Source: Acidobacteriota bacterium (GTDB lineage Bacteria > Acidobacteriota > Terriglobia > Terriglobales > Acidobacteriaceae). Taken from it: DNA of 64,000 bases. The stretch lies in NCBI GenBank assembly GCA_016196065.1, contig JACPYL010000025.1, positions 62,001 to 126,000 on the forward strand, given 5' to 3'. Made by a program: the position numbers and the translations under genes. Below, piece after piece: positions 20,177 to 62,144 of this stretch (position 1 is the first letter of the stretch; each line of letters opens with the position of its first letter). The notes under the pieces are model-generated. The model was not told where the DNA came from, did not search any database, and saw only the letters and a list, made by a program, of their open reading frames with translations.

Positions 20177-20210
20177 GCACGGTGATTGTAGTCCCAGTGA
20201 ACGCTTTATA

Positions 20211-20293
20211 GGAACTGTCATCCCGAGCGGAGCGAGGGATCTGTAGTTAGCTGCGAAATGCAGATCCCTCGCTCCGCTCGGGATGACAGTTCC
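20211..20293. repeat. Perfect 33-bp inverted repeat
   Basis: Left arm 20211-20243 and right arm 20261-20293 are exact reverse complements, with a 17-base loop. The core reads GTCATCCCGAGCGGAGCGAG. It sits between two CRTAC1-type genes and covers the upstream alternative start of the 3' one. A related but diverged element is at 42770-42868. Confidence 0.92.
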
Positions 20294-20306
20294 TCAAAAA
20301 TGGTGC

Positions 20307-23738: not shown

Positions 23739-23815
23739 CTTGGGTTACGAGTGATTCTACTTGAGCGTGGGCTGGATTTTGCTGGAAACGCGATTGCTAG
23801 GGCTCGTGACCGGCG

Positions 23816-25573: not shown

Positions 25574-28449
25574 CGGCCAACTCCCGAGGCCATACCGCCG
25601 TCGCTGGGAATGTGCCGTCGCTTTTGAGCCGGCAACGATGCAACGGTCTTGACAGACCCGACCGGCAGCTGCACGGAGACATGTTCGTGAATATTCTGGC
25701 GCTCGTTGTTGTCTTCGGGATTGAGCTGACGATATGGGCCGGTAATCGTCTGGGCTGATTCGTCGGCTTTGAATCGCATGTAGCGGGTCTGATGCTCCTT
25801 GGCCATCTTCTCGTCGCCGAGTCCGTTGTAGCAGAGCATCAGGTTGTAATGCGCCTGCAGATCCTCGGGATCAATCGCGAGCACCCGCTGCAGAGTTTTC
25901 ACCGCATCCGCGTATTTGCGCTGCAGGAACTGCACTCGCCCGAGATTATTCAACGCGACCCGGTCGCGCGGGTATTGCGCCAGCACTTTTCCGAGATGTT
26001 GTGCGGCGCCGTCATAGTCGCCCGCCTGACGCAGGACACCCGCATAAAAAAAGTGCGCTCTTGCGAGATCGGGACTGAGCGTGAAGGCTTTTTCAAGCAC
26101 CGTGCGGGCGCGCTCGACGTCACCTTCCTGCAGAGCGGCGCGTCCGATGTTGACCCAGCCATCGGGGTTTTGCGGGTCGACCTGCGTGACTCTTTCAAAC
26201 GCCACCTGCGCGGCTTTCAGATCGCCTTGGAGGAGCAGTCCGATGCCGTAGTCGTTCCAGCGTTGCCAGTCTTCCTTGCGAAGATCGGTTTTGGGTTGAG
26301 GCGTAGGAGCGCCCGCTGGTAGAACATCGATTGCAACCTGATTCTGCGCGACGGTCACGATCGGCAGATCTGGAATTTTCTCTTGTTTTGCTGAAACACC
26401 TTGCAGCGAGCCGTTAACCGCAAATTTCCTGTCGTCGTAATCGGGCGTCACGGCTGCGGCGGGCTGATTCGGTTCCGGAACTCCGCCAAAAGCAAACTGC
26501 GTTCCCCACCACGCGAATTTTCGATAGAGCAGTCGCGCCGTTAACGTGATCTTGCCGCCAACCGTGCCGCTGGCATTCGGAATCTTCATCCTGAAATGAA
26601 CAGTGTCGGCGGCGCCAGGCGGAATCAATCGTACATAGACAACCGAGCGAGTTGCCCATGCGTTGCGCTTGTTGATGCGATTGCCGTGTGCATCAACTTG
26701 CAACGAACGGTAGAAGTGCGCGCCCTTCTCGACCGGACCATTTCCATTGTTCTCGACTTCGCCGCTCCAGAAAACGACCTGTCCGCGCTCGTCCACACCT
26801 TTCAGTTCGAGCCACGTATCGTACGCATCGACGGTACCGCCTGGGAAAAAGTGGCCGACTCGTTTTGTGCGGACAACGACATCCACGCGCACCGTGTCGC
26901 CGCGTCGCACGGAGGGCTGCACTCGATCCAGCGGGGCGGTGACGGGCACGGCTTCTCCAACCGTTCCCGGCGTGATTTTCGCTTCCGCTTCCTCGCCAAC
27001 TGCAAACGTCGTCGAGACTTCATGCTGCGCAGTCGCTCCGGCTTTCACTTCACGCGCCGGTGACAGCGCAAAGATGTCGACCGTAAGAGCCCCGCTGGTC
27101 AGGAAATCTTCTGTCTTCTTTAACTGCTCGGGATCTTCGTTCGCGGTCGGCAACGCGGTGTTCGCGGCCGGGAAGCGGTGAGAATGGACCTTGCCGGCGA
27201 CATTGCCCATGTCATTCGAAGGCTCGAGAGGCATGTGGCAATCGGCACACCCCTGGGACTTCGGCGGGTAATAAAACGATCGCGCGCCCTGACCCGAAAC
27301 GCCGCTGGCCTGCCAGTTGTCATACTCGTTGAAGCCGCGAATCCACCGATAGTGGTTGACCGGAACATCCAGATGAACCTTGTGGCAGGAGGAACAGAAC
27401 TCGGCAGTCTGGTCGCGCATGAAAGGTTTGAGAAACACGCGCCGGTGCGGTTCCGGATTCAGTTTTGTGATCATGTCATGCAGGTAGACCACAACCGGAT
27501 TCTTGCTGGCCGCAAGTTCATGCAACTTGGGATATTCCAGGAAAAAATCTGCCTGCCCCATCGTGCTCTTCACGTCGGCGATGGCGTGACACATCATGCA
27601 GCCCAATCCGGCCTGCGCTTCCGGACTGTGCACGATCTGCTTGATCGGCGTATCCATTTTCCCGGCATAGAGCACGGCTGGATCATGACAACCGCCACAC
27701 CACTTGGAAGGCTTGGTGCCGACGACGTCCTGCATGTACTCGATCGAGTTGCGATACCACTGGTTGTTGAACGAAGAGAAATGGTGCGCCGAGCTATACC
27801 ACTGCTTATACACATCTTCATGGCAGCGCTTGCAGGAATCGGACTCCATGAAGAACTTGCTGGGAATTTTCTGTCCGCCATAAACCTGCGCGGAACTGGG
27901 GAAGAACGCACCTTGTAGACCATCGCCTTCCGCGTCCATCGTCGCAGGAGGCAGCGTGGGATTCTTGATCACGTAATAGCTCAACCAACGCGTCTCGCGC
28001 TGATAGCGCGCGGCCCAACCCACGCCCGCAACTACAGCGAGGCAAACAACCACTCGGACGAAGGCGTTTGAACTCAACCAGCCCCGTTTTCCGATTGCCT
28101 CGGCGAGCAAACATCCGATGCCTGCAACGCTGGCGATGATATGCGCGTATAACCATCTGAATTCGCTGTGCGGAGTGCCTGTCCGAATCAGAAACAATCC
28201 AAGAATTGCGCCCGCCAAGAGCAGGAGCCATCCCATCTTCCAGACAAGATTCCCCTGGCGCAAAAGCGGCCAGAGCAGCACAAGTAGAAAGACCGTCGCG
28301 ACGACGCCGCCAACGACGTGCATCAGCACGATGGCGGGATAGAGGACATTGGCTTGCGGGAACGGATATAGATACAGGGCGCTGAATAGCAGCAGCAACA
28401 TCAGGGCGCGCAGTATTTTCTGCGCAGTCGAGATTTTGGGCTCGGACAT
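25570..28449 (-). CDS. Membrane-anchored pentahaem cytochrome c with C-terminal TPR domain
   Basis: A 959-residue protein. The first 160 residues hold four to five membrane helices. A periplasmic domain follows with five CxxCH haem sites (C206, C251, C284, C352, C401), the first in the context CKRCHEDVYKQWYSSAHHFS, resembling cytochrome c-554-type haem domains. Then comes a beta-rich region (about 460-700) and about four TPRs (about 715-890). Electron transfer at the membrane is likely; the partner is unknown. Start taken at the ATG of MSEPKIS; a TTG at 28491 is an alternative. First gene of the CRTAC1 block and coupled by GTGA to the next. Confidence 0.87.
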   Translation of the reverse strand: MSEPKISTAQKILRALMLLLLFSALYLYPFPQANVLYPAIVLMHVVGGVVATVFLLVLLWPLLRQGNLVWKMGWLLLLAGAILGLFLIRTGTPHSEFRWLYAHIIASVAGIGCLLAEAIGKRGWLSSNAFVRVVVCLAVVAGVGWAARYQRETRWLSYYVIKNPTLPPATMDAEGDGLQGAFFPSSAQVYGGQKIPSKFFMESDSCKRCHEDVYKQWYSSAHHFSSFNNQWYRNSIEYMQDVVGTKPSKWCGGCHDPAVLYAGKMDTPIKQIVHSPEAQAGLGCMMCHAIADVKSTMGQADFFLEYPKLHELAASKNPVVVYLHDMITKLNPEPHRRVFLKPFMRDQTAEFCSSCHKVHLDVPVNHYRWIRGFNEYDNWQASGVSGQGARSFYYPPKSQGCADCHMPLEPSNDMGNVAGKVHSHRFPAANTALPTANEDPEQLKKTEDFLTSGALTVDIFALSPAREVKAGATAQHEVSTTFAVGEEAEAKITPGTVGEAVPVTAPLDRVQPSVRRGDTVRVDVVVRTKRVGHFFPGGTVDAYDTWLELKGVDERGQVVFWSGEVENNGNGPVEKGAHFYRSLQVDAHGNRINKRNAWATRSVVYVRLIPPGAADTVHFRMKIPNASGTVGGKITLTARLLYRKFAWWGTQFAFGGVPEPNQPAAAVTPDYDDRKFAVNGSLQGVSAKQEKIPDLPIVTVAQNQVAIDVLPAGAPTPQPKTDLRKEDWQRWNDYGIGLLLQGDLKAAQVAFERVTQVDPQNPDGWVNIGRAALQEGDVERARTVLEKAFTLSPDLARAHFFYAGVLRQAGDYDGAAQHLGKVLAQYPRDRVALNNLGRVQFLQRKYADAVKTLQRVLAIDPEDLQAHYNLMLCYNGLGDEKMAKEHQTRYMRFKADESAQTITGPYRQLNPEDNNERQNIHEHVSVQLPVGSVKTVASLPAQKRRHIPSDGGMASGVGR

Positions 28450-28608
28450 ATCGGCACTATGCATCAGAAAAAACTGTTTTGCCCCACGCAAGCAACAATT
28501 CGTAAGATGGCCAGCCTATTTCATCCCCGGCGAGCCGGATAATAGTACAAACATACTAGGAAGCATGGCTACGTAGAGCCGTGCGACAAATCCGCGCAGA
28601 AACTTGCG

Positions 28609-50010: not shown

Positions 50011-50247
50011 CTAGGAAGCGACCGCCAACCGTACGTTCAACTCACGGCGTGCCCGTTCAAGACGCAACGTCACGGCGGTAGAACTGATACCGAGAATGGC
50101 AGCGGCCTCATCAACCGAGAACCCTCGCAGGTCGCAGAGTAGAAGCGCCTTGCGAAATACGGAAGGCATTTCAAAAGCATGCATCACGATGTTCTCGAGT
50201 GCATCCTTGTCACTGTAGATTCGCGTTACTTGATCGATGCCATTCAT
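50011..50247 (-). CDS. Orphan sigma-70 region 4-like protein
   Basis: A 78-residue protein that is essentially a lone sigma region 4: MPSVFRKALLLCDLRGFSVD, then the helix-turn-helix AAAILGISSTAVTLRLERAR. Region 2, needed for -10 recognition and core binding, is absent, and the 190 bases upstream do not encode it. It may act as a -35-binding partner of another sigma factor, or as an antagonist. AAGGAT lies 9 bases before the ATG. A copy of the recurrent promoter-like element lies at 50324-50364, about 85 bases upstream. Confidence 0.82.
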   Translation of the reverse strand: MNGIDQVTRIYSDKDALENIVMHAFEMPSVFRKALLLCDLRGFSVDEAAAILGISSTAVTLRLERARRELNVRLAVAS

Positions 50248-50323: not shown

Positions 50324-50364
50324 CCTCTACTAGGAAGATCGAAAAAGGAAGGGCAAAAGCGACA
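50324..50364 (-). promoter_or_regulatory. Recurrent ECF-like promoter element (copy e)
   Basis: Minus strand: TGTCGCT (50358-50364), 16 bases, CGATCTT (50335-50341), then CCTAGTAGAGG. It precedes the orphan sigma region-4 gene and is the most diverged of five copies. Confidence 0.6.
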
Positions 50365-50436
50365 TCTTCCGAGGAGGTAAAACTCTGATTACAACTGGCG
50401 GGCCGTGGCTCGGCGGGAACGGGAAGTGATCGAGAC

Positions 50437-51018
50437 CTATTTCAGATAACGCTGTTTGATGATGTCCACGTGCCGCAGTTCGTGGCCGGCGATGTGATAG
50501 GCAAGGGCGCGCACGCTCACGCGATTTCCGTCAGCGACGCCCGTCCTCATGAGTGCCGCGTCATCGAGGCTGTTAAACAGGGCGATAGTCGATTGCCGCA
50601 CGCTCACAAATTCGGAGAGGAGATCAGTCATGTCGCGGTCATTCGCGCCTGAATACCGCGCAAAGAGGTCTTGGTCAAATCCAGGAAGCTCGATAGCATC
50701 GTTACGGGCAAAGCGCAGAGCCCGGTAAGCGTAAATGCGTTCATCGTCGACAACATGTCCGACGATTTCTTTGATCGTCCATTTCCCTTCGGCATAGCGA
50801 TGCATCAGGCGAGCTTTTGGAATCGATGCGAGAAACACCGTCGTGGATTTCAGGTTGTCCTGCAGATGCCGCAGGACAAGTCCGTCGCCGGGCAGGAGAT
50901 CGATGTAGATGTCAGCGTATGCCGGATACTCCGTCTTCTTCGGCTTTTCGATGACGCGCAGCGACCGCGGGCCTTCCGGCTCAACGGTATTCGGTTCTCG
51001 CGACGGTGGAGCTTCCAT
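50437..51018 (-). CDS. DinB-family protein (cytoplasmic)
   Basis: A 193-residue DinB_2-type four-helix protein. Candidate metal histidines lie in IKEIVGHVVDDERIYAYR and in RALAYHIAGHELRHVDI. No signal peptide, unlike the DinB protein at 1590. The start is set at 51018, where GGGAGG stands 6 bases upstream. It overlaps the end of the 50981-51208 small gene by 38 bases. Substrate unknown; thiol- or metal-dependent transferase activity is typical of the fold. Confidence 0.85.
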   Translation of the reverse strand: MEAPPSREPNTVEPEGPRSLRVIEKPKKTEYPAYADIYIDLLPGDGLVLRHLQDNLKSTTVFLASIPKARLMHRYAEGKWTIKEIVGHVVDDERIYAYRALRFARNDAIELPGFDQDLFARYSGANDRDMTDLLSEFVSVRQSTIALFNSLDDAALMRTGVADGNRVSVRALAYHIAGHELRHVDIIKQRYLK

Positions 51019-51208
51019 TCTCATCCTCCCTGCAACTCGGCGCTTCGGTCGACGGATGGAATTCAATCCTAAATTCGTGCTCCTCCGCAGGCAAATGATT
51101 TGCCGGCAGGATACAGCGGAGTCCGTTGCTCATCACCGGACAAAGATCCAGGCGCCCGGCAACCATCTGCACCAATTCCTCAATCTGTTGATCGAGACTC
51201 ATAGACAT
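50981..51208 (-). CDS. Small Cys/His protein overlapping the DinB gene
   Basis: A 75-residue frame: a helix (DQQIEELVQMVAGRLDL), then CPVMSNGLRCILPANH and HEFRIEFH, a Cys/Cys/His/His arrangement that recalls short zinc-binding modules. AAGGAT lies about 11 bases before the ATG. Its last 38 bases overlap the DinB gene in another frame, so the two are probably translated from the same message. No family name can be given. Confidence 0.5.
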   Translation of the reverse strand: MSMSLDQQIEELVQMVAGRLDLCPVMSNGLRCILPANHLPAEEHEFRIEFHPSTEAPSCREDENGSSTVARTEYR

Positions 51209-51294
51209 ACGTTGAGCATCCTTCCGTTGGGAGATAGACGCTACCTCTAGTCGCTTTCACACGCCAACCCCTTGCGGGGCCGGCGGTCGACGTT

Positions 51295-52170
51295 TTACAA
51301 ACCCTTATAAGCGACCGTCACGGTCTTCGACGCCCCAGGTGGAACCCTAAGGCCGTACCCCATGGCCACCGATCCATCGGTGTCTACCAGCGGACCGTCG
51401 GCGCTCTGGATGTTGCAGGGTGACGGCCCACCCGGACCCGCTTGGACAAATCCCGTCAGCAATCCGGCCTGCGGTGTCCCAACATTCTGCAATACCAATC
51501 CGAACGGATTGTTGAAGCTGATCGAATTCCAGGCGAACGCGCTTCCAAGAGTCGCATCCAGATTGTTGGCAAAAAGGCCATCCGCATCCACGTCCGCGTA
51601 ACGGAGCAGCAATGCTGTTTTCGTTACTTTCGCGTTGTTCTTCAGCGCCATCACGATCTTGACCGACGGCGACCCGCCGGCGATCTGGGAAATGGTTTGG
51701 GTTAACGTCCATGCGCCGTCCGCGGTCGTACGCGCGATCTTGAGCATCTTCGCGCTTTGGCTGATCACGACCGGAGAATTCCAATTACCGGTATCCCCAA
51801 ACTCCGCGTAGTCGTCATATTCAACGTTGGCATCGAAGTCACAGATGCCGTACCCCTCACCGTTGATACCGTCGGGCCCAACGTTGATGTGTTCCTGGCC
51901 TTCAGGAGTTTCCAGTTGCGTGATGTTGCCATTCGCGGTCACGCAATATTTCAAAAAGCTGAGGTTTGTGCCCGAGGTAAAGGTGAAGGAACATGCGCCG
52001 GTGGCCGTCGGACTATGAAACCTGGATTGTGAGGCGCTCTTTTGCGCCAATCCGGCCGCTGCCTGCTGTCGGGGGCTGACTGCTGAATGGACTCGTTTTA
52101 CGCCCGGAAATTGAGCGAAGCTGAACGAACAGAGAATGGGAACAATGATGGCGATGATGAGTTTCTTCAT
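51295..52170 (-). CDS. Secreted protein of unknown function
   Basis: A 291-residue exported protein (signal peptide MKKLIIAIIVPILCSFSFAQ). The mature part is beta-rich with motifs ACSFTFTSGTNLSFLKYCVT, EGYGICDFDANVEYDDYAEFG and SKTVTVAYKGL; paired cysteines suggest disulfides. It resembles no enzyme family known to me and may be a surface or matrix protein. AGGAGATTCT precedes the ATG. The promoter-like element (copy a) lies about 125 bases upstream. Confidence 0.82.
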   Translation of the reverse strand: MKKLIIAIIVPILCSFSFAQFPGVKRVHSAVSPRQQAAAGLAQKSASQSRFHSPTATGACSFTFTSGTNLSFLKYCVTANGNITQLETPEGQEHINVGPDGINGEGYGICDFDANVEYDDYAEFGDTGNWNSPVVISQSAKMLKIARTTADGAWTLTQTISQIAGGSPSVKIVMALKNNAKVTKTALLLRYADVDADGLFANNLDATLGSAFAWNSISFNNPFGLVLQNVGTPQAGLLTGFVQAGPGGPSPCNIQSADGPLVDTDGSVAMGYGLRVPPGASKTVTVAYKGL

Positions 52171-52287
52171 AGAATCTCCTGGAAATTAGTCGTTGCGGAA
52201 GAAGTGACGAGAACGCCCCCTTCCTGAACCCAAATCTGGCGCGAACATCCCTCCCAGGCGTCCGCGCCAGTGCGGTGGGCCAAGCGG

Positions 52288-52329
52288 GGTACTATTTGAG
52301 ATATCGAAACCCGGAGACAAAAGACGACA
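52288..52329 (-). promoter_or_regulatory. Recurrent ECF-like promoter element (copy a)
   Basis: Minus strand: TGTCGTC (52323-52329) TTTT, then CGATATC (52300-52306) after a 16-base gap, then TCAAATAGT. It lies upstream of the secreted-protein gene starting at 52170; its first base touches the T-tract of the terminator at 52329-52356. Confidence 0.65.
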
Positions 52330-52356
52330 AAATAAAACCGGCCCCTTATGGGCCGG
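52329..52356 (-). terminator. Rho-independent terminator
   Basis: Minus strand: CCGGCCC, loop ATAAG, GGGCCGG, then TTTTATTTT. It ends the 52381-52920 gene, probably the whole unit starting at 53387. Confidence 0.88.
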
Positions 52357-52380
52357 AATATTCTTGCCAGCAGAGGCCAT

Positions 52381-52920
52381 TCATTGTTTCGTCGCCAACT
52401 GTTCTGGTGTCGCCTGATCTTCTTCAGCAGTCGATGCGAGGATGAGGTCGGCGGCGTTCCGGGACTCGGCGATCCACTCCCAGACCCGGCGTCCCTTGCC
52501 GTTGGAAAACGCCCTTACCTCTCCGGACGCGACCAGACGATTGAATACGGTCGTCACCGACGCAAGCGGAGTCTTGTGATGTTCGATCAGACCCGGGAAT
52601 CGGCGTTGCATTTCCCGTAATCCTTGACGCGCTTCCAGAGGCGTCGTTGACTCCATCAAAACCGCGCGACAGCCCCGCGTGAGTCCGGGCTGCTTGCGGG
52701 CCGGGATGCGTCCCAACAAATGCAGCACCTCTGGAGTCAGTACTTCGTCACCAAAGACTTTCTCGAGATAGACGAGAGTCTGTTTCACGGTCCCGATGCG
52801 TTTCATGAGTTCAGACCGCTGGCGTAGAAGCTGAATTAATTCGTGCTGCGCTGAATGGACCACTTCCTCAATATGTCCATTCAACGCAGCCGGGTTAGCC
52901 ACAGTACGTACGGAGCTCAT
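52381..52920 (-). CDS. Hypothetical protein with helical N-terminus and winged-helix-like C-terminus
   Basis: A 179-residue cytoplasmic protein. Residues about 15-60 form a probable coiled coil (VVHSAQHELIQLLRQRSELM); about 85-150 look like a winged helix (TPLEARQGLREMQRRFPGL, SVTTVFNRLVASGEVRAF), suggesting DNA binding. No family name can be given with confidence. AGGAGAAGAG precedes the ATG. It starts 44 bases after the 52965-53387 gene, with no promoter-like element of its own, so it is probably transcribed with it and ends at the hairpin 52329-52356. Confidence 0.75.
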   Translation of the reverse strand: MSSVRTVANPAALNGHIEEVVHSAQHELIQLLRQRSELMKRIGTVKQTLVYLEKVFGDEVLTPEVLHLLGRIPARKQPGLTRGCRAVLMESTTPLEARQGLREMQRRFPGLIEHHKTPLASVTTVFNRLVASGEVRAFSNGKGRRVWEWIAESRNAADLILASTAEEDQATPEQLATKQ

Positions 52921-52964
52921 TCACTCTTCTCCTGACTGATCTAACTAAGTACCGAGCAACGTTG

Positions 52965-53387
52965 TTACGGTTGGCTTCCTTCCGCCGCCTCGCGAGAATC
53001 GGTCGAGCGACGCTTCGCCATGACGACCTGCTCCTTGACGTGCGTAAGCTGCTGGCCGGTATCGCTGCCGTCCCATACCTCGGACAGAATGTGCATTCCA
53101 TCCGCGGTCGCGAACTTCAGCTTTGACTCATTGAAAGTAGCGCGCGATTCGATTCCTGCCGTGAGAGCCTGGGCGACAGCGCGTCCACGCGCATCGCGCA
53201 GCACCATTACATTTTGTTCGGGCTGGGTGAATGTGTACTGACCAGCCGGAAACGTCTGCGAGCCGAATTGGAATTCAAACGGAACATTCACTTTCAGGTT
53301 GTGAGTCGTCTGCGCCGGGGCTGCTACCGCCAGTCCCATCACAGCGAGAGTGAGTGATGCCAAAGTACGAGTAACAAGATGTTTCAT
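52965..53387 (-). CDS. Small secreted beta-rich protein of unknown function
   Basis: A 140-residue exported protein with a signal peptide (LASLTLAVMGLAVAAPAQT). The mature domain begins NLKVNVPFEFQFGSQTFPAG, a pattern I associate with small secreted proteins of Acidobacteriota, and continues YTFTQPEQNVMVLRDARG. Function unknown. The start at 53387 has a strong AGGAGG 6 bases upstream. Promoter-like element (copy b) lies about 215 bases upstream. Confidence 0.82.
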   Translation of the reverse strand: MKHLVTRTLASLTLAVMGLAVAAPAQTTHNLKVNVPFEFQFGSQTFPAGQYTFTQPEQNVMVLRDARGRAVAQALTAGIESRATFNESKLKFATADGMHILSEVWDGSDTGQQLTHVKEQVVMAKRRSTDSREAAEGSQP

Positions 53388-53593
53388 ACTTCCTCCTAAT
53401 TGTGGTAAACACCGGTAACCGATCTCCGGATTCCAGGAGCTTGGCCGCGCATTACGAGCTGGGGGAGTTCTGCACGGGCACCCAAGCCCCTGGGATCGAG
53501 ATATCCAACACTGGCGTTCAGAGTCTTCTTGTGCCGCCGGAACGCTCAGCCGCCGACCTCGCCTTCCAGTTCGACGCGAGCGGCTAAGCGTTT

Positions 53594-53636
53594 GATCTCT
53601 ACTTGGGATATCGGAACGGCGAGGGAAAAGACGACA
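53594..53636 (-). promoter_or_regulatory. Recurrent ECF-like promoter element (copy b)
   Basis: Minus strand: TGTCGTC (53630-53636) TTTT, 16-base gap in all, CGATATC (53607-53613), then CCAAGTAGAGATC. Upstream of the secreted-protein unit starting at 53387. Confidence 0.65.
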
Positions 53637-53760
53637 CCCGGCAGCACGTTTTTTGTGCAATTCGACGTCAGTCTGTTCTAAGAGATCGATCAGGCACGCG
53701 ATGCAGCCCTGAGTAAGGGCGCATCGTCGGATTGCTGAAGAGCAAACCTACCAGGGTGTG

Positions 53761-53788
53761 AAAAAACCGGCCTCAGACGAGGCCGGTT
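53761..53788 (-). terminator. Rho-independent terminator
   Basis: Minus strand: perfect 10-bp stem AACCGGCCTC/GAGGCCGGTT with a 4-base loop and six T. It lies about 70 bases after the mddA-like stop codon. Confidence 0.9.
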
Positions 53789-53860
53789 GTGCTTATCCAC
53801 GGGACCGCCGTCGATGTGCGCGGCGGCCAGTTTTAAATTCGCTGATCCCCGGGAAGGAAC

Positions 53861-54634
53861 TTACTTGGTCTTGGCGCCACCCTCGCTAGCTCCCGCCAGG
53901 CTCGCGTTCGATATCTTCGGTAACGGAATCAGCATCGGCACTTGTTTGCGATAGCTTCGGTAGGACTCGCCGTGTTCCGTCATCAGGTCTCGCTCCTCCA
54001 GAAATATTCCCAGCAGGATGTATCCCGTGCAGGCGGCCGCAAAAAACAGATGTCCAACGCTCATCCGGGGAGCAGACCAGAACGCAATGATAAATCCGAG
54101 GTAGAGCGGGTGACGCACGATCCGGTACAGGATGGGCGTGCGAAATTTTGCGCCGCCATACTGCTTGCCGCGGAAGTGTCCCCACACCTGCTGCAGTCCA
54201 AATAGTTCAAAATGGTTGATCAGGAATGTGCTGGTGAAAAGGAGCACCCATCCCAGCCAGAACGCGATCGTCAGCAAGGCGGCGGCGACGCCGTGCAGTT
54301 CCCAGACTAATTGCGGAATAGAACGCCACTGCCAGAGCAGCAACATCAACAACAGCGTGGCGGCCAGCACATACGTGGGACGCTCCAGGTGTTTGGGAAT
54401 GATTCTTGTCCACGCTCGCTTAAAACCTTGTCGGGCCATGATGCTGTGTTGAGCCGCGAACAGGGTTAGAAGAACGGCGTTGATGGCAAGTGCCGCCAGC
54501 AGCGGCGATTCCGGGCCGCTGTCAATTGTTTTTGGAACTGCGATATTGCCGATAAACAATATGGCGTAGATAAACGAGAACAAAAATAGTCCATACGCGA
54601 TCGACCCATATAACAGTGAAAATGCACGTCTCAT
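53861..54634 (-). CDS. mddA: Methanethiol S-methyltransferase-like membrane protein (MddA family)
   Basis: A 257-residue protein with about five to six membrane helices. The C-terminal block ILYRIVRHPLYLGFIIAFWS, followed by LEERDLMTEHGESYRSYR and VPMLIPLP, is the isoprenylcysteine-methyltransferase-like SAM site; together with INHFELFGLQQVW it matches MddA, which methylates methanethiol to dimethylsulfide. NnrU or other ICMT-like relatives cannot be excluded. Start at 54634 with AGGAG 9 bases upstream. Promoter element (copy c) lies about 140 bases upstream. Confidence 0.75.
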   Translation of the reverse strand: MRRAFSLLYGSIAYGLFLFSFIYAILFIGNIAVPKTIDSGPESPLLAALAINAVLLTLFAAQHSIMARQGFKRAWTRIIPKHLERPTYVLAATLLLMLLLWQWRSIPQLVWELHGVAAALLTIAFWLGWVLLFTSTFLINHFELFGLQQVWGHFRGKQYGGAKFRTPILYRIVRHPLYLGFIIAFWSAPRMSVGHLFFAAACTGYILLGIFLEERDLMTEHGESYRSYRKQVPMLIPLPKISNASLAGASEGGAKTK

Positions 54635-54762
54635 AGTTCGATTCTCCTGACGGAAGGATCTGACGTGGACAGCTGCGCAGGTTCCCTGCCTAGCGCGGCC
54701 GTCCGCGTGAAGATTCCTTCCGGAAACACTTCTCGGGTTGGACATGAACAGTCCGAAGAAGT

Positions 54763-54805
54763 GATCTCTACTTGTGGAATCGGAAACGGAGGGCAAAAGA
54801 CGACA
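54763..54805 (-). promoter_or_regulatory. Recurrent ECF-like promoter element (copy c)
   Basis: Minus strand: TGTCGTC (54799-54805) TTTT, 16-base gap, CGATTCC (54776-54782), then ACAAGTAGAGATC, the last nine bases identical to copy b. Upstream of the mddA-like gene. Confidence 0.65.
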
Positions 54806-54848
54806 GCCCCAAGAAAAAAACTTGAAGGCAGGCACCGGCTAACAAATG

Positions 54849-57596
54849 TCATGTGTGGGAGTCTGCGAGATCGCGAGCACTACGTGTGTCGGGATGATCT
54901 GGGCCGAGAGTACTTTCCAGATGTTCGAATGCCGAGCGAAAGGCGGACCGAGCTTCCTCGATTTTGCCCTGCGACTGCAGCGCATGGCCCAAGGTCAGGT
55001 AGGCGCGGCCGGCTATACAGGAGAACGTTCCCTGTTCGGTAATGGGTCGCAGAAGTTCCAAGGCCTTGGCCGAATCAGATGCGGCCTGCTGGGGCCGTTG
55101 CAGATCGAGTTGAATCGACGAGCGGCGGACGAACAGAGTGGGCAATAGCGTCGCTCCCTGTCCGCCCGACTTGATCGCGGCTTCATCAATCGTTACGGCA
55201 TGATCCGCCAACTGCAATGCGGAAGAAAAATCCCCCATCGTCTGCGCCAGAAGAGCCTGATCGGAGGCGATGGCTGCGAGCGCGATGTGCTCGGGAGGCA
55301 GAAGGCGACGATATTTCTGTTCCACCTGTGCAAAGGCTGCAGTCGCGCGCTTGAAATCCCGCCGATCCCGGTAAATGCGCCCCTGCTGCAGAACCAACTT
55401 GTCGATCAGCACTGCGTCGCGGGCCTGACGAGCTTTGGCGTAGGCGCGGTCCGCGTAATCAGCCGCTTCAGGAAGGCGTCGCAAATCGCGAAGAACGAGA
55501 GAATAGTTGTACAACAAGGTTGGTGGAACGGCGTCTTCGGTCTGATTGGTTCTGCCAACGTCGATCGCGTGCCGGTAGGCCTTTTCCGCCTCCAGGGGCC
55601 GTCCCGCATAAAACAGGACGACGCCCCAGTCATTGAACAACTTCGCCGCCTTTTGCGTTTCGTCGTACCCGAGATTCATCATCAGGACCGAAGCTCGTTC
55701 AAACGTGGCGTTCGATTCTCGAAACTGGCCGGTACCTCCGTACGCGCCCGCAAGCTGGATCATGGCAGTGAGTTCTTCGACGGGAGAATGGGCAGGCGAC
55801 TCCTTCACAATCCGCACCGCCGACTGAGCTCGCTCCACGGCTTGCTCTGAGCGGCCCCTACCGTAGGCGATCTCGCTTCCGTAGGCCAGGCAATACACGC
55901 GGTCGGAGCCAAACTGCAGTTCCTCTGGCAGCTCGCGGAAGCCTTCCTGAAAGAGCGCTTCAGCGCGTTCCAAATCACCGACGCTGACCATCTGGCCAGC
56001 TAACGCGCACGAGGCTTTCGCTCGCACGGACTTTTCTGTCAGCCCGCGGGAAAGTTGATAGGCCTCTTGAAGCACGCGCAGACCCTTGGTGTTCTCGGCT
56101 TCACTCGAGTATTGATCGCCGATCGAAATCAACAACTCAACATGATTCGCGGCATTTTCGTAGTGTTCGCGCTCGACGATATGCTCCTCGCGTTCGATCA
56201 GCTCATTGGGCGTGAGGGCCTTTCCCTGCGGCGCGACGTCAGTCAGCAGGATATCGTTCAGATCGTTGAGTCGCTCCGCGCGGGAGAGTTGGTGAAGTGC
56301 GAAATCACGCTGCACGCGCGCCGTCCTCGCTTGGATCCATGTACCAACCAATCCCCCCGCCGTCGCCACAACCGCGACGCTCGCGAGTACGACCGCTGTC
56401 CGGTGCCGGCGTACGAACTTGGCAGTTCGATAGGCTAGCGAATCTGGGCGAGCGCTGATCGGTGCGTGACGGAGGTAGCGCCGCAGGTCATCTGCCAGGG
56501 CGGTCACTGACGGATAACGTTCGGCTGGATCTTTCTTCAGCGCCTTGGCGATGATGGTGTCGAGGTCTCCGCGCAGCATCCGTTGGAGCCTGTCGGGAGT
56601 CGTGGTCCGTTTCGCAGCCGTGGCAGTCGTCAGTTCAGAGTTCGTTCCCGAGATCACGGCATCGGAAGGCCGCCCCGCCTCCGTATCCACAATCGCCTTC
56701 ACGATGTCTGCCGGCGTTTTCGAATCCGAGCCAGAGGGATGCTGCCCGGTTAGCAATCCATAGAGCAACACACCCAAGGCATAGACGTCTGTGGCTGTCG
56801 TGATGGGGCCGCCGCGCAGCTGTTCCGGAGCCGCGCATTCGGGCGTCAACGCGCGCACGCCTTCCGCAGTCATGGTCTTGCTTCCCGCAAGGCTCACACC
56901 TTCCAACAACTTCGCGATGCCAAAATCGAGCAGCTTTACCTGGCCGTCATTGCGTACCAGCACGTTTGAGGGCTTGATATCGCGGTGCACAACGAGGTTG
57001 GCGTGCGCGTGAGCTACCGCTGCGAGCACATCGAGGAAGAGCCGGATTCGCGCGTCGACGGCGAGTTTATGCAGGTCGCAATAGCCATCGATGTGCTCAC
57101 CCTCAATGTGCTCGAGGATCAGGTAAGGCTGTCCAGCCTGCGAGACTCCTGCATCGACCAGTTCCGCGATATTGGGATGAACGAGCAACGCCAAGATCCG
57201 GCCTTCCCGTTTGAACCGCGCTTCACCGGCCTTTCCCATGAACGCGAGGTTCAGAAACTTCACCGCCACTCGCCGCTCGAAACGGCCGTCATTCCGTTCT
57301 GCGAGCCACACGCTGCCCATGCCACCCTGACCGAGCGGGGACAACAGCGTGTAGTCACCCAGCGTTTTGCCAGCAAGCCCGGTTTCTACCGGCAGACTCG
57401 AAGCATCGCGATCGAGAAAGCCTTCGTCGCACAAGGAGCGGTACTCGTGGAAGAGGATTTCCAATTGCTCCGCAAGAGCGGAGTTCTCGGCACGAATATC
57501 CGACAGCCAAGCCAATCGTTCTTCGTCCGTTTTTTCCAGCGCCTGGTCCAGGTAAGGACTCAGCGTCTGCCATTGATCGGGAATTTCATTACCCAT
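54849..57596 (-). CDS. Transmembrane Ser/Thr protein kinase with C-terminal TPR region (paralogue 1)
   Basis: A 915-residue PknB-type kinase. A helical N-terminus (1-75) precedes the kinase domain (about 82-380): glycine loop LGQGGMGSVW, K113, HRDIKPSN with D206, DFG with D224. One membrane segment lies at about 400-421, and the last 480 residues are TPR-like helices (LYNYSLVLRDLRRLPEAADY, AYLTLGHALQSQGKIEEARS). Kinase inside, TPR sensor outside is the likely layout. It is a paralogue of the next gene upstream and probably arose by tandem duplication. Confidence 0.9.
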   Translation of the reverse strand: MGNEIPDQWQTLSPYLDQALEKTDEERLAWLSDIRAENSALAEQLEILFHEYRSLCDEGFLDRDASSLPVETGLAGKTLGDYTLLSPLGQGGMGSVWLAERNDGRFERRVAVKFLNLAFMGKAGEARFKREGRILALLVHPNIAELVDAGVSQAGQPYLILEHIEGEHIDGYCDLHKLAVDARIRLFLDVLAAVAHAHANLVVHRDIKPSNVLVRNDGQVKLLDFGIAKLLEGVSLAGSKTMTAEGVRALTPECAAPEQLRGGPITTATDVYALGVLLYGLLTGQHPSGSDSKTPADIVKAIVDTEAGRPSDAVISGTNSELTTATAAKRTTTPDRLQRMLRGDLDTIIAKALKKDPAERYPSVTALADDLRRYLRHAPISARPDSLAYRTAKFVRRHRTAVVLASVAVVATAGGLVGTWIQARTARVQRDFALHQLSRAERLNDLNDILLTDVAPQGKALTPNELIEREEHIVEREHYENAANHVELLISIGDQYSSEAENTKGLRVLQEAYQLSRGLTEKSVRAKASCALAGQMVSVGDLERAEALFQEGFRELPEELQFGSDRVYCLAYGSEIAYGRGRSEQAVERAQSAVRIVKESPAHSPVEELTAMIQLAGAYGGTGQFRESNATFERASVLMMNLGYDETQKAAKLFNDWGVVLFYAGRPLEAEKAYRHAIDVGRTNQTEDAVPPTLLYNYSLVLRDLRRLPEAADYADRAYAKARQARDAVLIDKLVLQQGRIYRDRRDFKRATAAFAQVEQKYRRLLPPEHIALAAIASDQALLAQTMGDFSSALQLADHAVTIDEAAIKSGGQGATLLPTLFVRRSSIQLDLQRPQQAASDSAKALELLRPITEQGTFSCIAGRAYLTLGHALQSQGKIEEARSAFRSAFEHLESTLGPDHPDTRSARDLADSHT

Positions 57597-57680
57597 TGAA
57601 TCCTCTGTACTGCAAGCGGCGCGTGCTGCGACATCGCGGTCTCAGCGGAACCTAGGCTAAGCAGGCGACGACGACCACTA

Positions 57681-60425
57681 TTAAAGATCGGCCATCTGCC
57701 GGGCGTTGTGGGTGTCGGGATGATCCGGACCCAATGTGCTTTGCAGGTTTTCCAGCGCGGAACGAAAGGCGGCGCGAGCTTCGCCGGGTTTTCCCTGCGC
57801 GCGCAGAGCGAGTCCCCGCGAGTAGTAAGCATGGCCGAGAACGCTCGAGAACGTTCCGGTCTCCACGGATTTTTGCAGAATGTGCAACGCTCTGTCTGCG
57901 TCCGCGGCTGCGTCGTCGGTTTGACCTGATTCGCGTTCGATATCCGACCGGGGGACCAGCAGCAACCCCAGGTAGTCTTCTCCTCCACGCCCAGCCTTGA
58001 TGGACGCTTCGGAAATTGCCTGCGCCTGATCGACGAACTGCCGAGCAGCCGGCAAATCCCCGCGTGCGCGCGCCAGGAGCGAATGCTCTGTAGCGAGCGC
58101 CGCAAACGCAAGATGGCCGGGAGGAAGCGCTTTCCGCAGTCTCGGTTCCACTTCCGACAACATGGCTTCCGCGCGTGCCAGCTTGCCCTGGTCGCGATAG
58201 ATTCGAGCTCGCATCAGGAGCGACTGATTGACCACCACCTGGTTGCCCGATTGCTTTCCCTTCGCATAGGCGCGCTCCGCGTAGTCCGCTGCCTCCTCGC
58301 GGCGTCCCAGTTCCCGCAGTGCGCGAGCGTAGTTGAGCAGCAGCATGGGTGAAACGCCTTCTTGCAACTGGTCGGCGCTACTGATATCGATGGCGCGGCG
58401 AAAGAGTTTTGCGGCTTCAAGCGGCCGGCCCGCGAGTTGCAGTGCGAGGGCCCAGTTATTGAACATTGTGCCGGCAGTCTCGGTGTCATCGCGTCCGAGG
58501 GCCGTCATGAGTGCGGAAGCATTCTGGAAAGCGGAAATCGAATCGCGAAACTGACCGGCCACGCGATACGATTCTGCCAAGCTCATCTGGACACGCAAAT
58601 CCGAGATCTCCGATCGCAGGGGCGATACAGAAAGCAGGTTCCGCGCCTCCTGACTGCGCGCGATGGCTTCCTGGGTAGCGCCGGCTTCGCGTGAGACCCC
58701 GCTTGCATCGAGCAGGCAATCGATGCGGTCGAGCGCGAACTGAGGATCGTTCTCTGGAAGCTCGCGTAGCCCTTCCTGGATCAGCGCTTCCGCGCGGGGC
58801 AAGTCGCTATGCGCCAGTGCCGACGCCAAAGCACATGCAGCCGACGCTCGAGCCGATGGATCCTTGAGTCCACGTGAAACCTGGTACGCCTGTTCAAGGA
58901 TGCTGCCGGCTTTGCCGTCCTCGTCCTGCCCCACATACTTGTGACCGATGGAAGTGAGCAACTCCGCCCGATTGGCTGCGCCCATGCTGGACTGCCGTTC
59001 CACGATGTGCTTCGCGCGCCCCAGCAGTTCATTCACGGTAAATCTCTTGCCGGAAGGCGCCGCATCCGCAAGCAGGAAGTTATCCAGGTCGTTGATGGAT
59101 TCTGAGCGCGCAAGTTGACGGAGCGCGAAGTCGCGTTGCGCGCGCGCCTTGCGCGACTCCATGAGTGTTCCCGCTACACCCGCGATAGAGGCTGCGATCG
59201 CCAACGTTGTCAGCAGCACTGCCGTTCGATGGCGTCGCACAAATTTGCGGGTGCGATACACAATCGCGTCGGGGCGCGCGCTGATCGGTTCATTTCTCAG
59301 GTAACGCCGAAGGTCGTCCGCCATCGCCGTCGCCGACGAATATCGCTCGGAGGGTTCCTTCTTGATCGCCTTCGTGATGATTGTGTCGAGATCGCCTCGC
59401 AGCAAGCGGCTGAGCTTGTGAGGATTCGTGCGCCGGCGTGAGGCATTCTGAACCGGGACCTCAGCACTTTCGTCTATGCAGGTCACGGACTCCGAAGGCC
59501 GGACCGGTTCGGTATCCACGATCGCCTTGACCAGATCTGCCGCTGTGTGTGGTCCGTTCCCCGCAGGATGATGGCCCGTCAGCAACACATAGAGTAAAAC
59601 GCCCAACGCGTAGACGTCGGTAGCGGTTGTGATGGGCTCGCCGCGCAGCTGTTCAGGCGCGGCGCAAGCAGGCGTCATCGCTCGCACGCCGTCGACCGTA
59701 AGCTCGGTCCCGGCCGGTTGTCCCTCGACCTCCAGTAACTTCGCAATGCCAAAATCGAGTAGCTTCGCTTGCCCATCGTTGCTAACCAGCACATTCAGGG
59801 GCTTGAGATCGCGATGCACAATCAGGTTGGCATGCGCGTGGGAAACCGCGCTGAGGACATCAATAAACAGACGAATCCGCGCTTCCACTCCGAGCGCGTG
59901 GTGATCGCAGTAGTGATCGATGCGATCCCCTTCGATGTGTTCGAGAATGATATAAGGCTGCCCTGCGCGGGTCACACCGGCATCGATCAATTCCGCGATG
60001 TGCGGATGTGCCAGGCGAGCCAGGATGTTCCCCTCCCGTCTGAATCGCTCCTCGCCGTCCTTGCCGACCAGAGCGAGGTTCAGGAACTTCACCGCCACCT
60101 GTCGCTCGAACCTTCCGTCGTTCCTTTTCGCGAGCCAGACGCTGCCCATGCCACCCTGGCCGATTTGTGTCACCAACGTGTACACGCCAATCGACTGCCC
60201 GGCCAAGCCCGTCTTCGCCGGCAATCCAACGGAGCCCTTCTCCAGGAAACCTTCCCCCGAGAGTGCGCGATAGTCCCGGAAGACGATCTCAAGCTGGGCC
60301 GCCAGGCTGGCATTCTGGACGCGTAACGCCGAGAGCCAACTGAAACGTTGTTCCTCTGTCATGGCCAGCGCTTCGTCCAGATAAGGACTCAGCGCCAGCC
60401 ATTGATCTTGATCGAGTGCGGGCAT
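57681..60425 (-). CDS. Transmembrane Ser/Thr protein kinase with C-terminal TPR region (paralogue 2)
   Basis: A 914-residue kinase with the same layout as its neighbour: kinase domain with IGQGGMGSVW, HRDLKPLN and DFG, one membrane segment near 400-420 (AVLLTTLAIAASIAGVAGTL), then TPR-like repeats (MLLLNYARALRELGRREEAA). Start at 60425, 8 bases after the ECF sigma stop; an upstream ATG at 60452 would overlap the sigma gene. The three genes form one unit, so the kinases may control the sigma factor by phosphorylation, as known for kinase-linked ECF groups. Confidence 0.9.
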   Translation of the reverse strand: MPALDQDQWLALSPYLDEALAMTEEQRFSWLSALRVQNASLAAQLEIVFRDYRALSGEGFLEKGSVGLPAKTGLAGQSIGVYTLVTQIGQGGMGSVWLAKRNDGRFERQVAVKFLNLALVGKDGEERFRREGNILARLAHPHIAELIDAGVTRAGQPYIILEHIEGDRIDHYCDHHALGVEARIRLFIDVLSAVSHAHANLIVHRDLKPLNVLVSNDGQAKLLDFGIAKLLEVEGQPAGTELTVDGVRAMTPACAAPEQLRGEPITTATDVYALGVLLYVLLTGHHPAGNGPHTAADLVKAIVDTEPVRPSESVTCIDESAEVPVQNASRRRTNPHKLSRLLRGDLDTIITKAIKKEPSERYSSATAMADDLRRYLRNEPISARPDAIVYRTRKFVRRHRTAVLLTTLAIAASIAGVAGTLMESRKARAQRDFALRQLARSESINDLDNFLLADAAPSGKRFTVNELLGRAKHIVERQSSMGAANRAELLTSIGHKYVGQDEDGKAGSILEQAYQVSRGLKDPSARASAACALASALAHSDLPRAEALIQEGLRELPENDPQFALDRIDCLLDASGVSREAGATQEAIARSQEARNLLSVSPLRSEISDLRVQMSLAESYRVAGQFRDSISAFQNASALMTALGRDDTETAGTMFNNWALALQLAGRPLEAAKLFRRAIDISSADQLQEGVSPMLLLNYARALRELGRREEAADYAERAYAKGKQSGNQVVVNQSLLMRARIYRDQGKLARAEAMLSEVEPRLRKALPPGHLAFAALATEHSLLARARGDLPAARQFVDQAQAISEASIKAGRGGEDYLGLLLVPRSDIERESGQTDDAAADADRALHILQKSVETGTFSSVLGHAYYSRGLALRAQGKPGEARAAFRSALENLQSTLGPDHPDTHNARQMADL

Positions 60426-60432
60426 CAGATTC

Positions 60433-60999
60433 TCAAATAGGCAGGTCCGCACGAATGCTGCGGTGGAGATAGATGCGCGCCTTTTCCCATTGTCTCTGCA
60501 CGGTCCGCTCCGACACCTTGTGCAGAGCGCCGATTTCGGCGAAAGAAAATCCGCAGAAGAACTTCAGATCCACTACCTCCGCAAGTTCAGGCTCGATCCT
60601 CGCCAGTTCATCCAGCGAATCGCTGATCGAGGAGAGTTGCCTGGCGTCGGCGAAATCGTCCGCAACATCGATTTCAAGCGATGTAATCTCGAACTCTCCA
60701 CCACGTTTGGTGGCGGTGCGGCGGCGTGCATGATCGATGATCAATCCGCGCATCACTCGTGCAGCATATCCCATGAAGCGAGCCTGATCCGGAAAGGACG
60801 CGCCATCGCGTCCGGAAATGTCCAGATAGGCTTCATGCAGCAGAGTGGTAACACTCAGACTTGGCGGACCCCATTGCCGCGCCAGCTCGCGTTTCGCCAT
60901 CCGATGCAACTCGGAATACAAAGTACTAAACAAAACATCTGTTGATGAATTGTCGCCTCGCTCGGCGATGTTACTGAAAGCAAAACCTGTAGACGCCAC
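60433..60999 (-). CDS. ECF sigma factor (kinase-linked, TIGR02999-type)
   Basis: A 188-residue sigma-70 family factor with region 2 (LHRMAKRELARQ, then MGYAARVMRGLIIDHARRR) and region 4 (LKFFCGFSFAEIGALHKVSERTVQRQW). No anti-sigma gene follows; instead two kinase-TPR genes do. The start is a GTG with GGGGGAG 6 bases upstream. Its target promoters are unknown; it is one candidate for reading the five-copy element in this region. Confidence 0.93.
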   Translation of the reverse strand: MASTGFAFSNIAERGDNSSTDVLFSTLYSELHRMAKRELARQWGPPSLSVTTLLHEAYLDISGRDGASFPDQARFMGYAARVMRGLIIDHARRRTATKRGGEFEITSLEIDVADDFADARQLSSISDSLDELARIEPELAEVVDLKFFCGFSFAEIGALHKVSERTVQRQWEKARIYLHRSIRADLPI

Positions 61000-61416
61000 G
61001 CAGTACTCCCCCTTTACTAAGGCCCCTCTCTGCCGTAAGCCGCAGCGCGAGGCTTGGAAATGAGATGAGCCACCTCGAACATAAGGTGACTTTTTTTGGA
61101 AATCGGCCTACGCGATGGTGCAGTGGGCCAAAGCAGCGTTCGCCTCGGTTGAGGGAACATCTGTCCTAGTTGTTGGGTGGGAAAGTTCCAACGAAAGTTA
61201 GTGTAGCGGCCTGCGATTCACGATTTGTCACACATTTGTCACCCAAACGTAATTTATTGCGCAGCGAACAAAAGACAAATCGGGCTGCGTTTTCGATCGA
61301 GCCCACGTTGCAAAAGCTATCCAGCAGGAAAAAAGCCCTTCCAGCCTGTAGCAGACCGAAAGGGCAATTATTCTCAGTCCAACATTCGTCCGTCCGACGA
61401 TCGCTTCAAGTACTGA
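61000..61416. other. Intergenic region upstream of the ECF sigma gene
   Basis: About 417 bases. The right part holds the terminator of the 61417-62019 gene; the left part must hold the promoter of the ECF-kinase unit, but I see no copy of the two-block element and no clear sigma-70 boxes. An open frame on the plus strand from 61170 is not convincing. Confidence 0.5.
61329..61366 (-). terminator. Probable rho-independent terminator
   Basis: Minus strand: GCCCTT, a loop of about 19 bases, AAGGGC, then six T. About 50 bases after the stop of the secreted-protein gene. Confidence 0.65.
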
Positions 61417-62019
61417 CTACTGGGCCTGGGGAGCGAACGTCTCACAGGAAACATTGGGGTGCCAGTTCACGAACGCTCCGTTTGGATTGTCCTTCCATGC
61501 CCAGACATGCAGCGTGTAGAACGGGGGAAGTCCGAAACGATTGGGAGCATCGAACAGATGAAAGAGTTGTCCCATCAACTCTGGCGGAGAAGTATGCTTC
61601 GGATCGGAATTCCATGTGTCGACGAGCACGAGGTAATCGGCGCCAATCAAGCGGAGTCCGCCGTTGGGCGTTGGTTCGTAGATCACAATCTGCGGACGAG
61701 TAGGATCGATCACGCCGCCTCCCACCAGACCACCGTTCACATAGTGCAAGCCCATCGCGCCCTCGGTATCACCGCTCACGCAACCGAATTGCAGGGCGTA
61801 CCCTTCGTGTTCCGCCACGGTCACATCCTGAAAACGCGCGGTCGATTGCCGCACGAGCTTGATCAGGGCGCTGGCCTGACTCTTCTGTTTCGCGCTCATT
61901 TCACTTTGCTGCATCGTGTTGTGTGAGTGGACGTCTTGTGCCAGCGCGTTCGAGGACGAAACGCCGATGAAAACGAGGGCACCGATCGCGAAATGTGTCG
62001 CGAATTTCTTGACTTTCAT
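61417..62019 (-). CDS. Secreted protein of unknown function
   Basis: A 200-residue exported protein (signal peptide ending near NALAQ). The mature part starts with a His/Met-containing stretch (DVHSHNTMQQSEM), then FGCVSGDTEGAMGLHYVNGG, VLVDTWNSD and YTLHVWAWKDNPNGAFVNW. Conserved-looking His and Trp suggest ligand or metal binding, but I recognise no family. Start at 62019 with GGAGG 8 bases upstream. The promoter-like element (copy d) lies about 95 bases upstream. Confidence 0.8.
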   Translation of the reverse strand: MKVKKFATHFAIGALVFIGVSSSNALAQDVHSHNTMQQSEMSAKQKSQASALIKLVRQSTARFQDVTVAEHEGYALQFGCVSGDTEGAMGLHYVNGGLVGGGVIDPTRPQIVIYEPTPNGGLRLIGADYLVLVDTWNSDPKHTSPPELMGQLFHLFDAPNRFGLPPFYTLHVWAWKDNPNGAFVNWHPNVSCETFAPQAQ

Positions 62020-62103
62020 TGTGGAAGCCTCCAGACCAACATGAATTGCACGAGGTTTCGGCAGACACGGGACGATACCCATGTCGACCGTCAATCCGAC
62101 TCC

Positions 62104-62144
62104 CCGCTGTTTGAGATATCGGAATCAGCCACAAAAAAACGACA
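62104..62144 (-). promoter_or_regulatory. Recurrent ECF-like promoter element (copy d)
   Basis: Minus strand: TGTCGTT (62138-62144) TTTT, 16-base gap, CGATATC (62115-62121), then TCAAACAG. Upstream of the secreted-protein gene starting at 62019. Confidence 0.62.

What the first reader, a model, noticed from the sequence alone, without database searches (positions are those of the whole stretch)
50324..62144. Five copies of a two-block promoter-like element define a probable small ECF-type regulon
Upstream of five minus-strand units (starts at 50247, 52170, 53387, 54634 and 62019) the same element occurs: TGTCGTC with a T-tract, then CGATATC or a close variant, with exactly 16 bases between the two 7-mers in all five copies, followed by a CAAGTAG-like stretch. 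Positions: 50324-50364, 52288-52329, 53594-53636, 54763-54805, 62104-62144. The constant gap, the same orientation and the distance of 85-215 bases from start codons fit an alternative promoter. From memory, some ECF groups (ECF41, ECF42) use TGTC-type -35 and CG-type -10 boxes. The downstream genes encode three secreted proteins, an MddA-like methyltransferase and an orphan sigma region-4 protein.
Basis: partly seen in the sequence, partly recalled or inferred. Interest (0 to 1): 0.9.

Follow-up and report, generated by a model that had tools for sequence, protein, structure and literature searches.

The report
Kinase-linked sigma factor promoter set
Five copies of one unusual promoter in a genome related to soil Acidobacteria most likely belong to the alternative sigma factor encoded among them beside two protein kinases, and the same arrangement recurs in dozens of related bacteria, mostly ahead of genes for exported proteins.

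Summary
In detail: all five elements exist at the stated places with exactly 16 bases between the 7-mers. A matrix from other species' copies ranks these five first in the window (31-54 bits; next -2.5). In 12 of 20 relatives' stretches chosen by motif, a close ECF lies with the motif. In 28 of 44 testable GTDB loci chosen by ECF and not used for training, the motif lies within 300 bp after the kinase stop; four more by eye; 12 lack it. Motif and ECF co-occur in 13 genomes (18 with motif, 15 with ECF, of 150; p=4.6e-13). The motif lies directly upstream of the ECF in 0 of 74 loci. Targets are mostly exported: 52 of 73 against 218 of 940. The sigma region normally reading DAED is SVTT, as in phosphorylation-activated ECF43 factors. 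Best reading: a kinase-activated ECF regulon of Acidobacteriota with a long promoter. Transcription and phosphorylation were not measured, and the main published ECF classification could not be read.

The parts
62104..62144 (-). promoter element 1 (TGTCGTT-16-CGATATC), upstream of exported-protein gene 61417-62019 and, beyond it, the ECF gene
   Evidence: same order motif-gene-ECF-kinase in L228
61417..62019 (-). exported 200-aa protein (start 62019); target family also in L139, L144, L228
   Evidence: cluster of 4; no Pfam match
60433..60999 (-). ECF sigma factor (PF07638, TIGR02999), proposed reader of the promoters; region 2.2 reads SVTT instead of DAED
57681..60452 (-). Ser/Thr kinase with TPR repeats, predicted transmembrane (HRDLK 213, DFG 233, strong hydrophobic segment near 412)
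54849..57596 (-). second Ser/Thr kinase with TPR repeats, predicted transmembrane (HRDIK 204, DFG 224, hydrophobic segment near 400); 56% identical to the first
54763..54805 (-). promoter element 2 (TGTCGTC-16-CGATTCC), about 44 bases after the second kinase gene, the place where most relatives have it
53861..54634 (-). methanethiol S-methyltransferase MddA
   Evidence: NCBIfam equivalog NF045656 E 7.9e-101, above cut-off; related targets in L041, L151
53594..53636 (-). promoter element 3 (TGTCGTC-16-CGATATC)
52965..53387 (-). exported 140-aa protein; a weak homologue follows a motif in L039
52381..52920 (-). 179-aa protein without Pfam match, possibly in the same transcription unit
   Evidence: position only
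52288..52329 (-). promoter element 4 (TGTCGTC-16-CGATATC)
51295..52170 (-). exported 291-aa protein; paralogue with its own motif at own-genome C12:296929 (L058), homologues in L037, L105
50437..51000 (-). DinB-superfamily protein downstream in the same orientation
50324..50364 (-). promoter element 5 (TGTCGCT-16-CGATCTT)
50011..50247 (-). 78-aa protein with sigma region 4 only
   Evidence: PF08281 E 3.3e-10

Best explanation
The five elements are promoters of the ECF sigma factor encoded at 60433-60999. TGTCGTCTTTT is the -35 part, CGATATC the -10 part, and the conserved TAGAG block covers the start of transcription, leaving a leader of roughly 80-210 bases. The ECF lacks the acidic DAED motif that grips RNA polymerase and has SVTT there. 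The kinases encoded with it, predicted to span the membrane with TPR domains beyond it, most likely sense an envelope signal and phosphorylate the sigma factor, probably at Thr51, which lets it bind polymerase and switch on exported proteins, MddA and a region-4-only protein. Shown here by computation: the elements, their conservation, their usual place after ECF-kinase operons, their recurrence ahead of the same target families, and the change in region 2.2. Inferred: promoter activity, start site, membrane topology, phosphorylation, signal, direction of control.
For: Close ECF (phmmer 4e-74 to 3e-84) with the motif in 12 of 20 stretches chosen by motif alone. Of 80 GTDB loci chosen by ECF alone, 67 did not contain a training copy or a locus seen before, and 44 of these were testable: 28 have the motif on the ECF strand within 300 bp after the kinase stop, against 7 hits elsewhere in 584 kb; four more by eye (L126, L144, L163, L180; the first two are among the 7) make 32 of 44. 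Three loci with no adjacent kinase found carry the motif soon after the ECF (L041, L120, L147). Co-occurrence 13 with 18 motif and 15 ECF genomes of 150, p=4.6e-13; 3.3e-12 without the own genome (two genomes with only a 37%-identical ECF were not counted as ECF genomes). In the 67 loci TGTCGNNTTT is followed by CGAT at gap 16 in 37 cases, 0 at 15 or 17 (5 at gap 10, one each at 11, 22, 24); same strand 37, opposite 2, reversed 0 in 822 kb. A gene visibly of the di-haem DHOR family that follows ECF-kinase-motif in L047, L048, L049, L051 and L056 has the motif at own-genome C1:163153, a contig without a clade member. None of the five other TIGR02999 ECFs of the genome has a credible motif within 50 kb. 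Region 2.2 lacks D/E in 77 of 79 ECFs parsed; EcfP has STTA with the second Thr phosphorylated (PMC8999054 section 12).
Against: 12 of 44 testable loci have no motif after the kinase, among them L103, the closest ECF by sequence (76%); L087 (72%, the window ECF's neighbour on the tree) and L088 also have none there. Eight of the 20 stretches chosen by motif show no close ECF, though five of the eight come from short contigs or incomplete genomes and four from genomes that have the ECF elsewhere. Five of 18 motif genomes have no close ECF: G036 and G037 are 76% and 53% complete; G044, G065 and G090 look like chance hits. The 67 loci are independent only in that they hold no exact training copy; some are near-copies of each other or of training loci. 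Residue-to-box covariation is weak: the VMRR sigma factors with CGTT are one clade, CGCT occurs with both G and T, and L213 has G with a weak CGTT copy. In X. citri EcfK, a T51A form still worked in vivo, so Thr51 need not be the only switch (PMC13147305, passages). No expression data.
Confidence: 0.86

Rival explanations
1. The element is the operator of an unidentified activator or repressor that acts with the housekeeping sigma factor, and the ECF-kinase pair is only a neighbour.
For: The conserved stretch is long (about 43 positions) and includes a T/C-rich spacer and a downstream TAGAG block, more than I recall for most ECF promoters. I compared the loci only with the window's proteins and did not search for another recurring regulator gene.
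Against: Loci chosen by motif alone contain the ECF in 12 of 20 cases and loci chosen by ECF alone contain the motif in 32 of 44. The element has a rigid 16-base gap of the size expected between -35 and -10, and the -10 variants tend to follow ECF clades.
Confidence: 0.07
2. The promoters are real but read by a different sigma factor, for example another of the eight TIGR02999 ECFs of the genome or one helped by the region-4 orphan.
For: The genome has 8 TIGR02999 ECFs above cut-off, three of them close paralogues that could share sites.
Against: The five other TIGR02999 genes have no motif hit within 50 kb except one 7.6 kb away inside a 235-aa frame; no counterpart of the region-4 orphan was found in the stretches compared (only a longer 241-aa frame in L088 matched it). 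Cross-talk among the three close paralogues is not excluded.
Confidence: 0.06
3. The element is part of a leader RNA, terminator or mobile repeat.
For: In 28 loci it starts 7-214 bases after the kinase stop codon, where a terminator could be.
Against: In 39 aligned copies conservation stops about 45 bases after its start, with no shared leader or flanks; it also lies ahead of genes not next to a kinase.
Confidence: 0.01

Closest known systems
ECF43 sigma factors with Hanks-type kinases (EcfP/PknT of Vibrio parahaemolyticus, EcfK/PknS of Xanthomonas citri)
   Same: ECF beside a Ser/Thr kinase; DAED of region 2.2 replaced by uncharged residues with Thr at the third position (SVTT here; STTA in EcfP; QATE, still with one acidic residue, in EcfK).
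   Different: Acidobacteriota; kinases with TPR domains; targets mostly exported proteins, di-haem enzymes and MddA; a promoter found right after the kinase gene. Group assignment was not tested.
Sig-70_X6 (TIGR02999) ECF family
   Same: Window ECF scores 148 bits against a cut-off of 126.
   Different: The family is broad; only one clade of it, 3 of 8 members in this genome, goes with this motif.
ECF41 / ECF42
   Different: Those have fused C-terminal domains (ECF41: title of PMC3426412 in search listings; ECF42: recalled); this ECF has none.

Membership tests
ECF (group 4) sigma factors | only regions 2 and 4, recognised by ECF profiles | tested here: met
   PF07638 131 bits, TIGR02999 148 bits over cut-off; the model is of low confidence (pLDDT 63) and Foldseek's best matches are sigma factors but none below E 0.001
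Phosphorylation-activated ECFs (ECF43 type) | gene beside a Hanks-type Ser/Thr kinase | tested here: met
   two kinases directly downstream; an adjacent kinase frame, complete or cut by the contig end, in 69 of 80 GTDB loci (counted)
Phosphorylation-activated ECFs (ECF43 type) | DAED of region 2.2 lost, Thr at the third position | tested here: met
   SVTT; no D/E in 77 of 79 parsed ECFs (two read GATE; five read SAST, with Ser at the third position; 8 others not parsed by the expression); profile alignment to SigL puts SATT opposite QAED
Phosphorylation-activated ECFs (ECF43 type) | Thr is phosphorylated by the kinase and this activates the factor | not testable with these tools
   needs biochemistry
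ECF43 group | assignment by the group's own profile | not testable with these tools
   the ECF group profiles were not available and the classification paper is not held
ECF41 / ECF42 | C-terminal regulatory extension | tested here: not met
   188 aa; match to the sigma profile ends at residue 182
Canonical autoregulated ECF | target promoter directly upstream of its own gene | tested here: not met
   0 of 74 GTDB loci with the motif within 400 bp upstream on the same strand; in the window and L228 it lies one gene further upstream

The most novel reading that the evidence does not exclude
A lineage of kinase-activated, not directly autoregulated ECF factors in Acidobacteriota reads an unusually long promoter (-35, conserved pyrimidine spacer, -10 and a start-site block), and its paralogues within one cell have split the -10 box (CGAT, CGTT, CGCT) into separate sub-regulons for exported proteins, di-haem enzymes and dimethylsulfide formation.
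Probability: 0.4. Interest if true: 0.7.

Novelty: new variant of a known kind. Interest (0 to 1): 0.6.

Why it matters
Promoter prediction for ECF factors rests largely on autoregulated ones (PMC8103513, passages); kinase-linked ECFs that do not control themselves are a gap. Here genome position gives sigma factor, kinase, promoter and target list together, in a soil phylum that is hard to grow (abstract start of PMC3174227 in a search listing), with a testable phosphorylation site and a possible control point for MddA, an enzyme of dimethylsulfide production in soil (PMC5607357, search listing).

Tried and rejected
Rejected: chance; leader RNA or repeat (conservation profile); the region-4 orphan as reader of the promoters (no counterpart in the stretches). 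Weakened by the tree: covariation of the VMR[G/R/T]L residue with the -10 box looked strong by counts but the VMRR factors are one clade and L213 goes against it, so it is at most one or two events. Led nowhere: profile search of solved structures at 1e-5 found nothing (five weak matches at E up to 1); the structure model is of low confidence and Foldseek gave no match below 0.001. Literature: nine paper searches; no paper on this motif or on an Acidobacteriota ECF-kinase regulon appeared in their listings, which cover open-licence papers only; the 2021 ECF re-classification, which may list a motif for this group, could not be read.
Full report
Observation.

More than chance. A 30-base pattern gave 10 hits in the whole genome and 0 for the reversed pattern. 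Four are window sites; C12:139461 and C12:296929 precede genes for exported proteins, the second a paralogue of the window's 51295-52170 gene; C10:1995628, C25:325775 and C25:496122 lie in longer reading frames; C27:78079 is unclear. A longer pattern found the five plus C10:1611470 and C1:163153 and nothing in the 395 other genomes drawn from the phylum (the draw did not include the motif-bearing relatives). A matrix from 39 foreign copies put the window's five first by more than 33 bits; those copies had been picked with a first matrix that contained the window's sites, so this shows separation, not full independence.

Which sigma factor. In the same family 18 of 150 genomes carry the pattern. 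I took 20 stretches around hits, by motif alone; 12 contain a close relative of the window's ECF, and in 11 of these the order is ECF, kinase-TPR, motif, target; in the twelfth, L041, no kinase was found. The other eight (L038, L039, L040, L044, L045, L046, L052, L053) have no close ECF in the stretch. The reverse test started from the ECF: 80 GTDB loci, of which 13 held a training copy or had been seen before, 67 remained, and 44 had a complete adjacent kinase frame and at least 150 bases after it; 23 were not testable. In 28 of 44 the motif lies on the ECF strand within 300 bases after the kinase stop; 7 other hits occur in 584 kb. Two misses have a shortened kinase frame with the motif further on (L126, L144; these are two of the 7) and two have a copy visible by eye below threshold (L163, L180), giving 32 of 44; 12 have none: L103, L127, L130, L140, L155, L159, L161, L169, L170, L171, L172, L178 (L130 has a copy on the other strand near the ECF start). 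Some of these loci are near-copies of one another (L124 and L126, L139 and L144). Where no adjacent kinase was found, in L041, L120 and L147, the motif follows the ECF. Motif and ECF co-occur in 13 genomes. Of the eight TIGR02999 factors in the genome, the three of this clade have a motif nearby: the window's, C10:1616334 (two copies, one of them found only with the -10 columns left out) and C18:73745 (a CGCT variant right after the kinase).

Promoter anatomy. In 39 copies aligned from the 67 loci by a loose expression, conservation is confined to about -20 to +45 relative to the first T: a weak T-rich stretch, TGTCGTCTTTT, a C/T-rich spacer, TTTCCGATATC and, with some play in spacing, TAGAG. 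With CGAT as second block the gap is 16 in 37 cases and never 15 or 17; 5 matches at gap 10 and single ones at 11, 22 and 24 were not examined; with CGAT, CGTT or CGCT one of 40 instances has 17. The distance from the second 7-mer to the start codon has a median of 96 bases over 73 unique sites, training sites included. These features fit -35, -10 and start site of an ECF promoter; the block names are inference.

Targets. Of 73 sites with a downstream reading frame, 52 encode a signal-peptide-like N-terminus by a crude hydrophobicity rule, against 218 of 940 other frames in the same kind of loci (Fisher p=1.4e-16; relatedness of loci not corrected for). Clusters by phmmer: 15, with a CCP_MauG/MbnH-like representative; 10, with a DHOR di-haem representative; 7 large proteins, representative without Pfam match; the window's 200-aa (4) and 291-aa (4) families; tectonin-domain proteins (4); MddA-type methyltransferases (3) (at most one representative of each was scanned). 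The own-genome gene after C1:163153 is visibly of the DHOR cluster's type by its N-terminal sequence and lies on a contig without a clade member. The order motif, 200-aa protein, ECF, kinase recurs in another genus (L228), so there the promoter might also feed the ECF; the direct upstream position was seen in 0 of 74 loci.

Activation. Both window kinases have VAVK, HRD and DFG motifs and one strong hydrophobic segment after the kinase domain. The sigma factor has SVTT where others have DAED; 77 of 79 parsed ECFs have no acidic residue there, the other two read GATE. A profile alignment with SigL of M. tuberculosis (weak, E 0.0095) places this tetramer opposite QAED and Gly85 opposite the Asn of its ARN motif in the -10-reading helix (the role of that Asn is recalled). 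PMC8999054 (section 12 read; passages), PMC8103513 (passages) and PMC13147305 (passages) describe or propose phosphorylation at the matching Thr in EcfP and EcfK; the last also reports that EcfK T51A still works in vivo and that linker residues are phosphorylated, so the switch may involve more sites. The analogy supports kinase activation here; it is not a test.

Paralogue split. Counting 51 unique loci, VMRG goes with CGAT in 44, CGCT in 2, CGTT in 1 and TGAT in 1; VMRR with CGTT in 2 (a third, L090, by eye), VMRT with CGCT in 1; L213, not in that count, has VMRG with a weak CGTT copy. The VMRR factors form one clade (100/88) and a VMRG sister of the VMRT factor already has CGCT (L118), so this shows promoter and sigma lineage changing together, not a residue-by-residue code. 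On the same tree the label 'motif found' is clustered (5 of 500 shuffles as low) but patchy, 21 changes on 85 rows, partly because some contigs end before the kinase does; L103 and L087, both without a motif after the kinase, sit next to the window's ECF. L087's genome has three pattern hits elsewhere, one before a weak relative of the 140-aa protein.

Verdict. Observation confirmed and interpretation supported, with the sigma factor and its kinases now named. Known kind (kinase-linked ECF), new variant: its promoter, place and targets did not appear in the nine search listings named under Tried and rejected; the 2021 classification was not readable.

Noticed in passing
window 50011-50247: A 78-aa protein with sigma region 4 only lies under promoter element 5; it might compete with or damp the ECF. 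No counterpart was seen in the stretches compared.
   Followed up: partly
window 54849-60452: Two tandem kinase-TPR genes, 56% identical, where the relatives compared mostly show one.
   Followed up: partly
L228:1068-1180: Two divergent copies of the motif about 110 bases apart in a genome of another genus, upstream of the 200-aa gene, the ECF and the kinase.
   Followed up: partly
L167, L176, L178, L179, L181: ECF relatives in assemblies labelled Betaproteobacteria, Burkholderiales or Aquabacterium; L167 also has a motif-like site. Transfer or mis-binning not examined.
   Followed up: no
L046:5948-9472: A more distant kinase gene (phmmer E about 1e-28) stands just before a motif in a stretch with no close ECF.
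   Followed up: no
window 18389-28491: A run of large FG-GAP/ASPIC-like, TPR and CxxCH-containing proteins visible in the reading-frame list; families judged by eye only.
   Followed up: no
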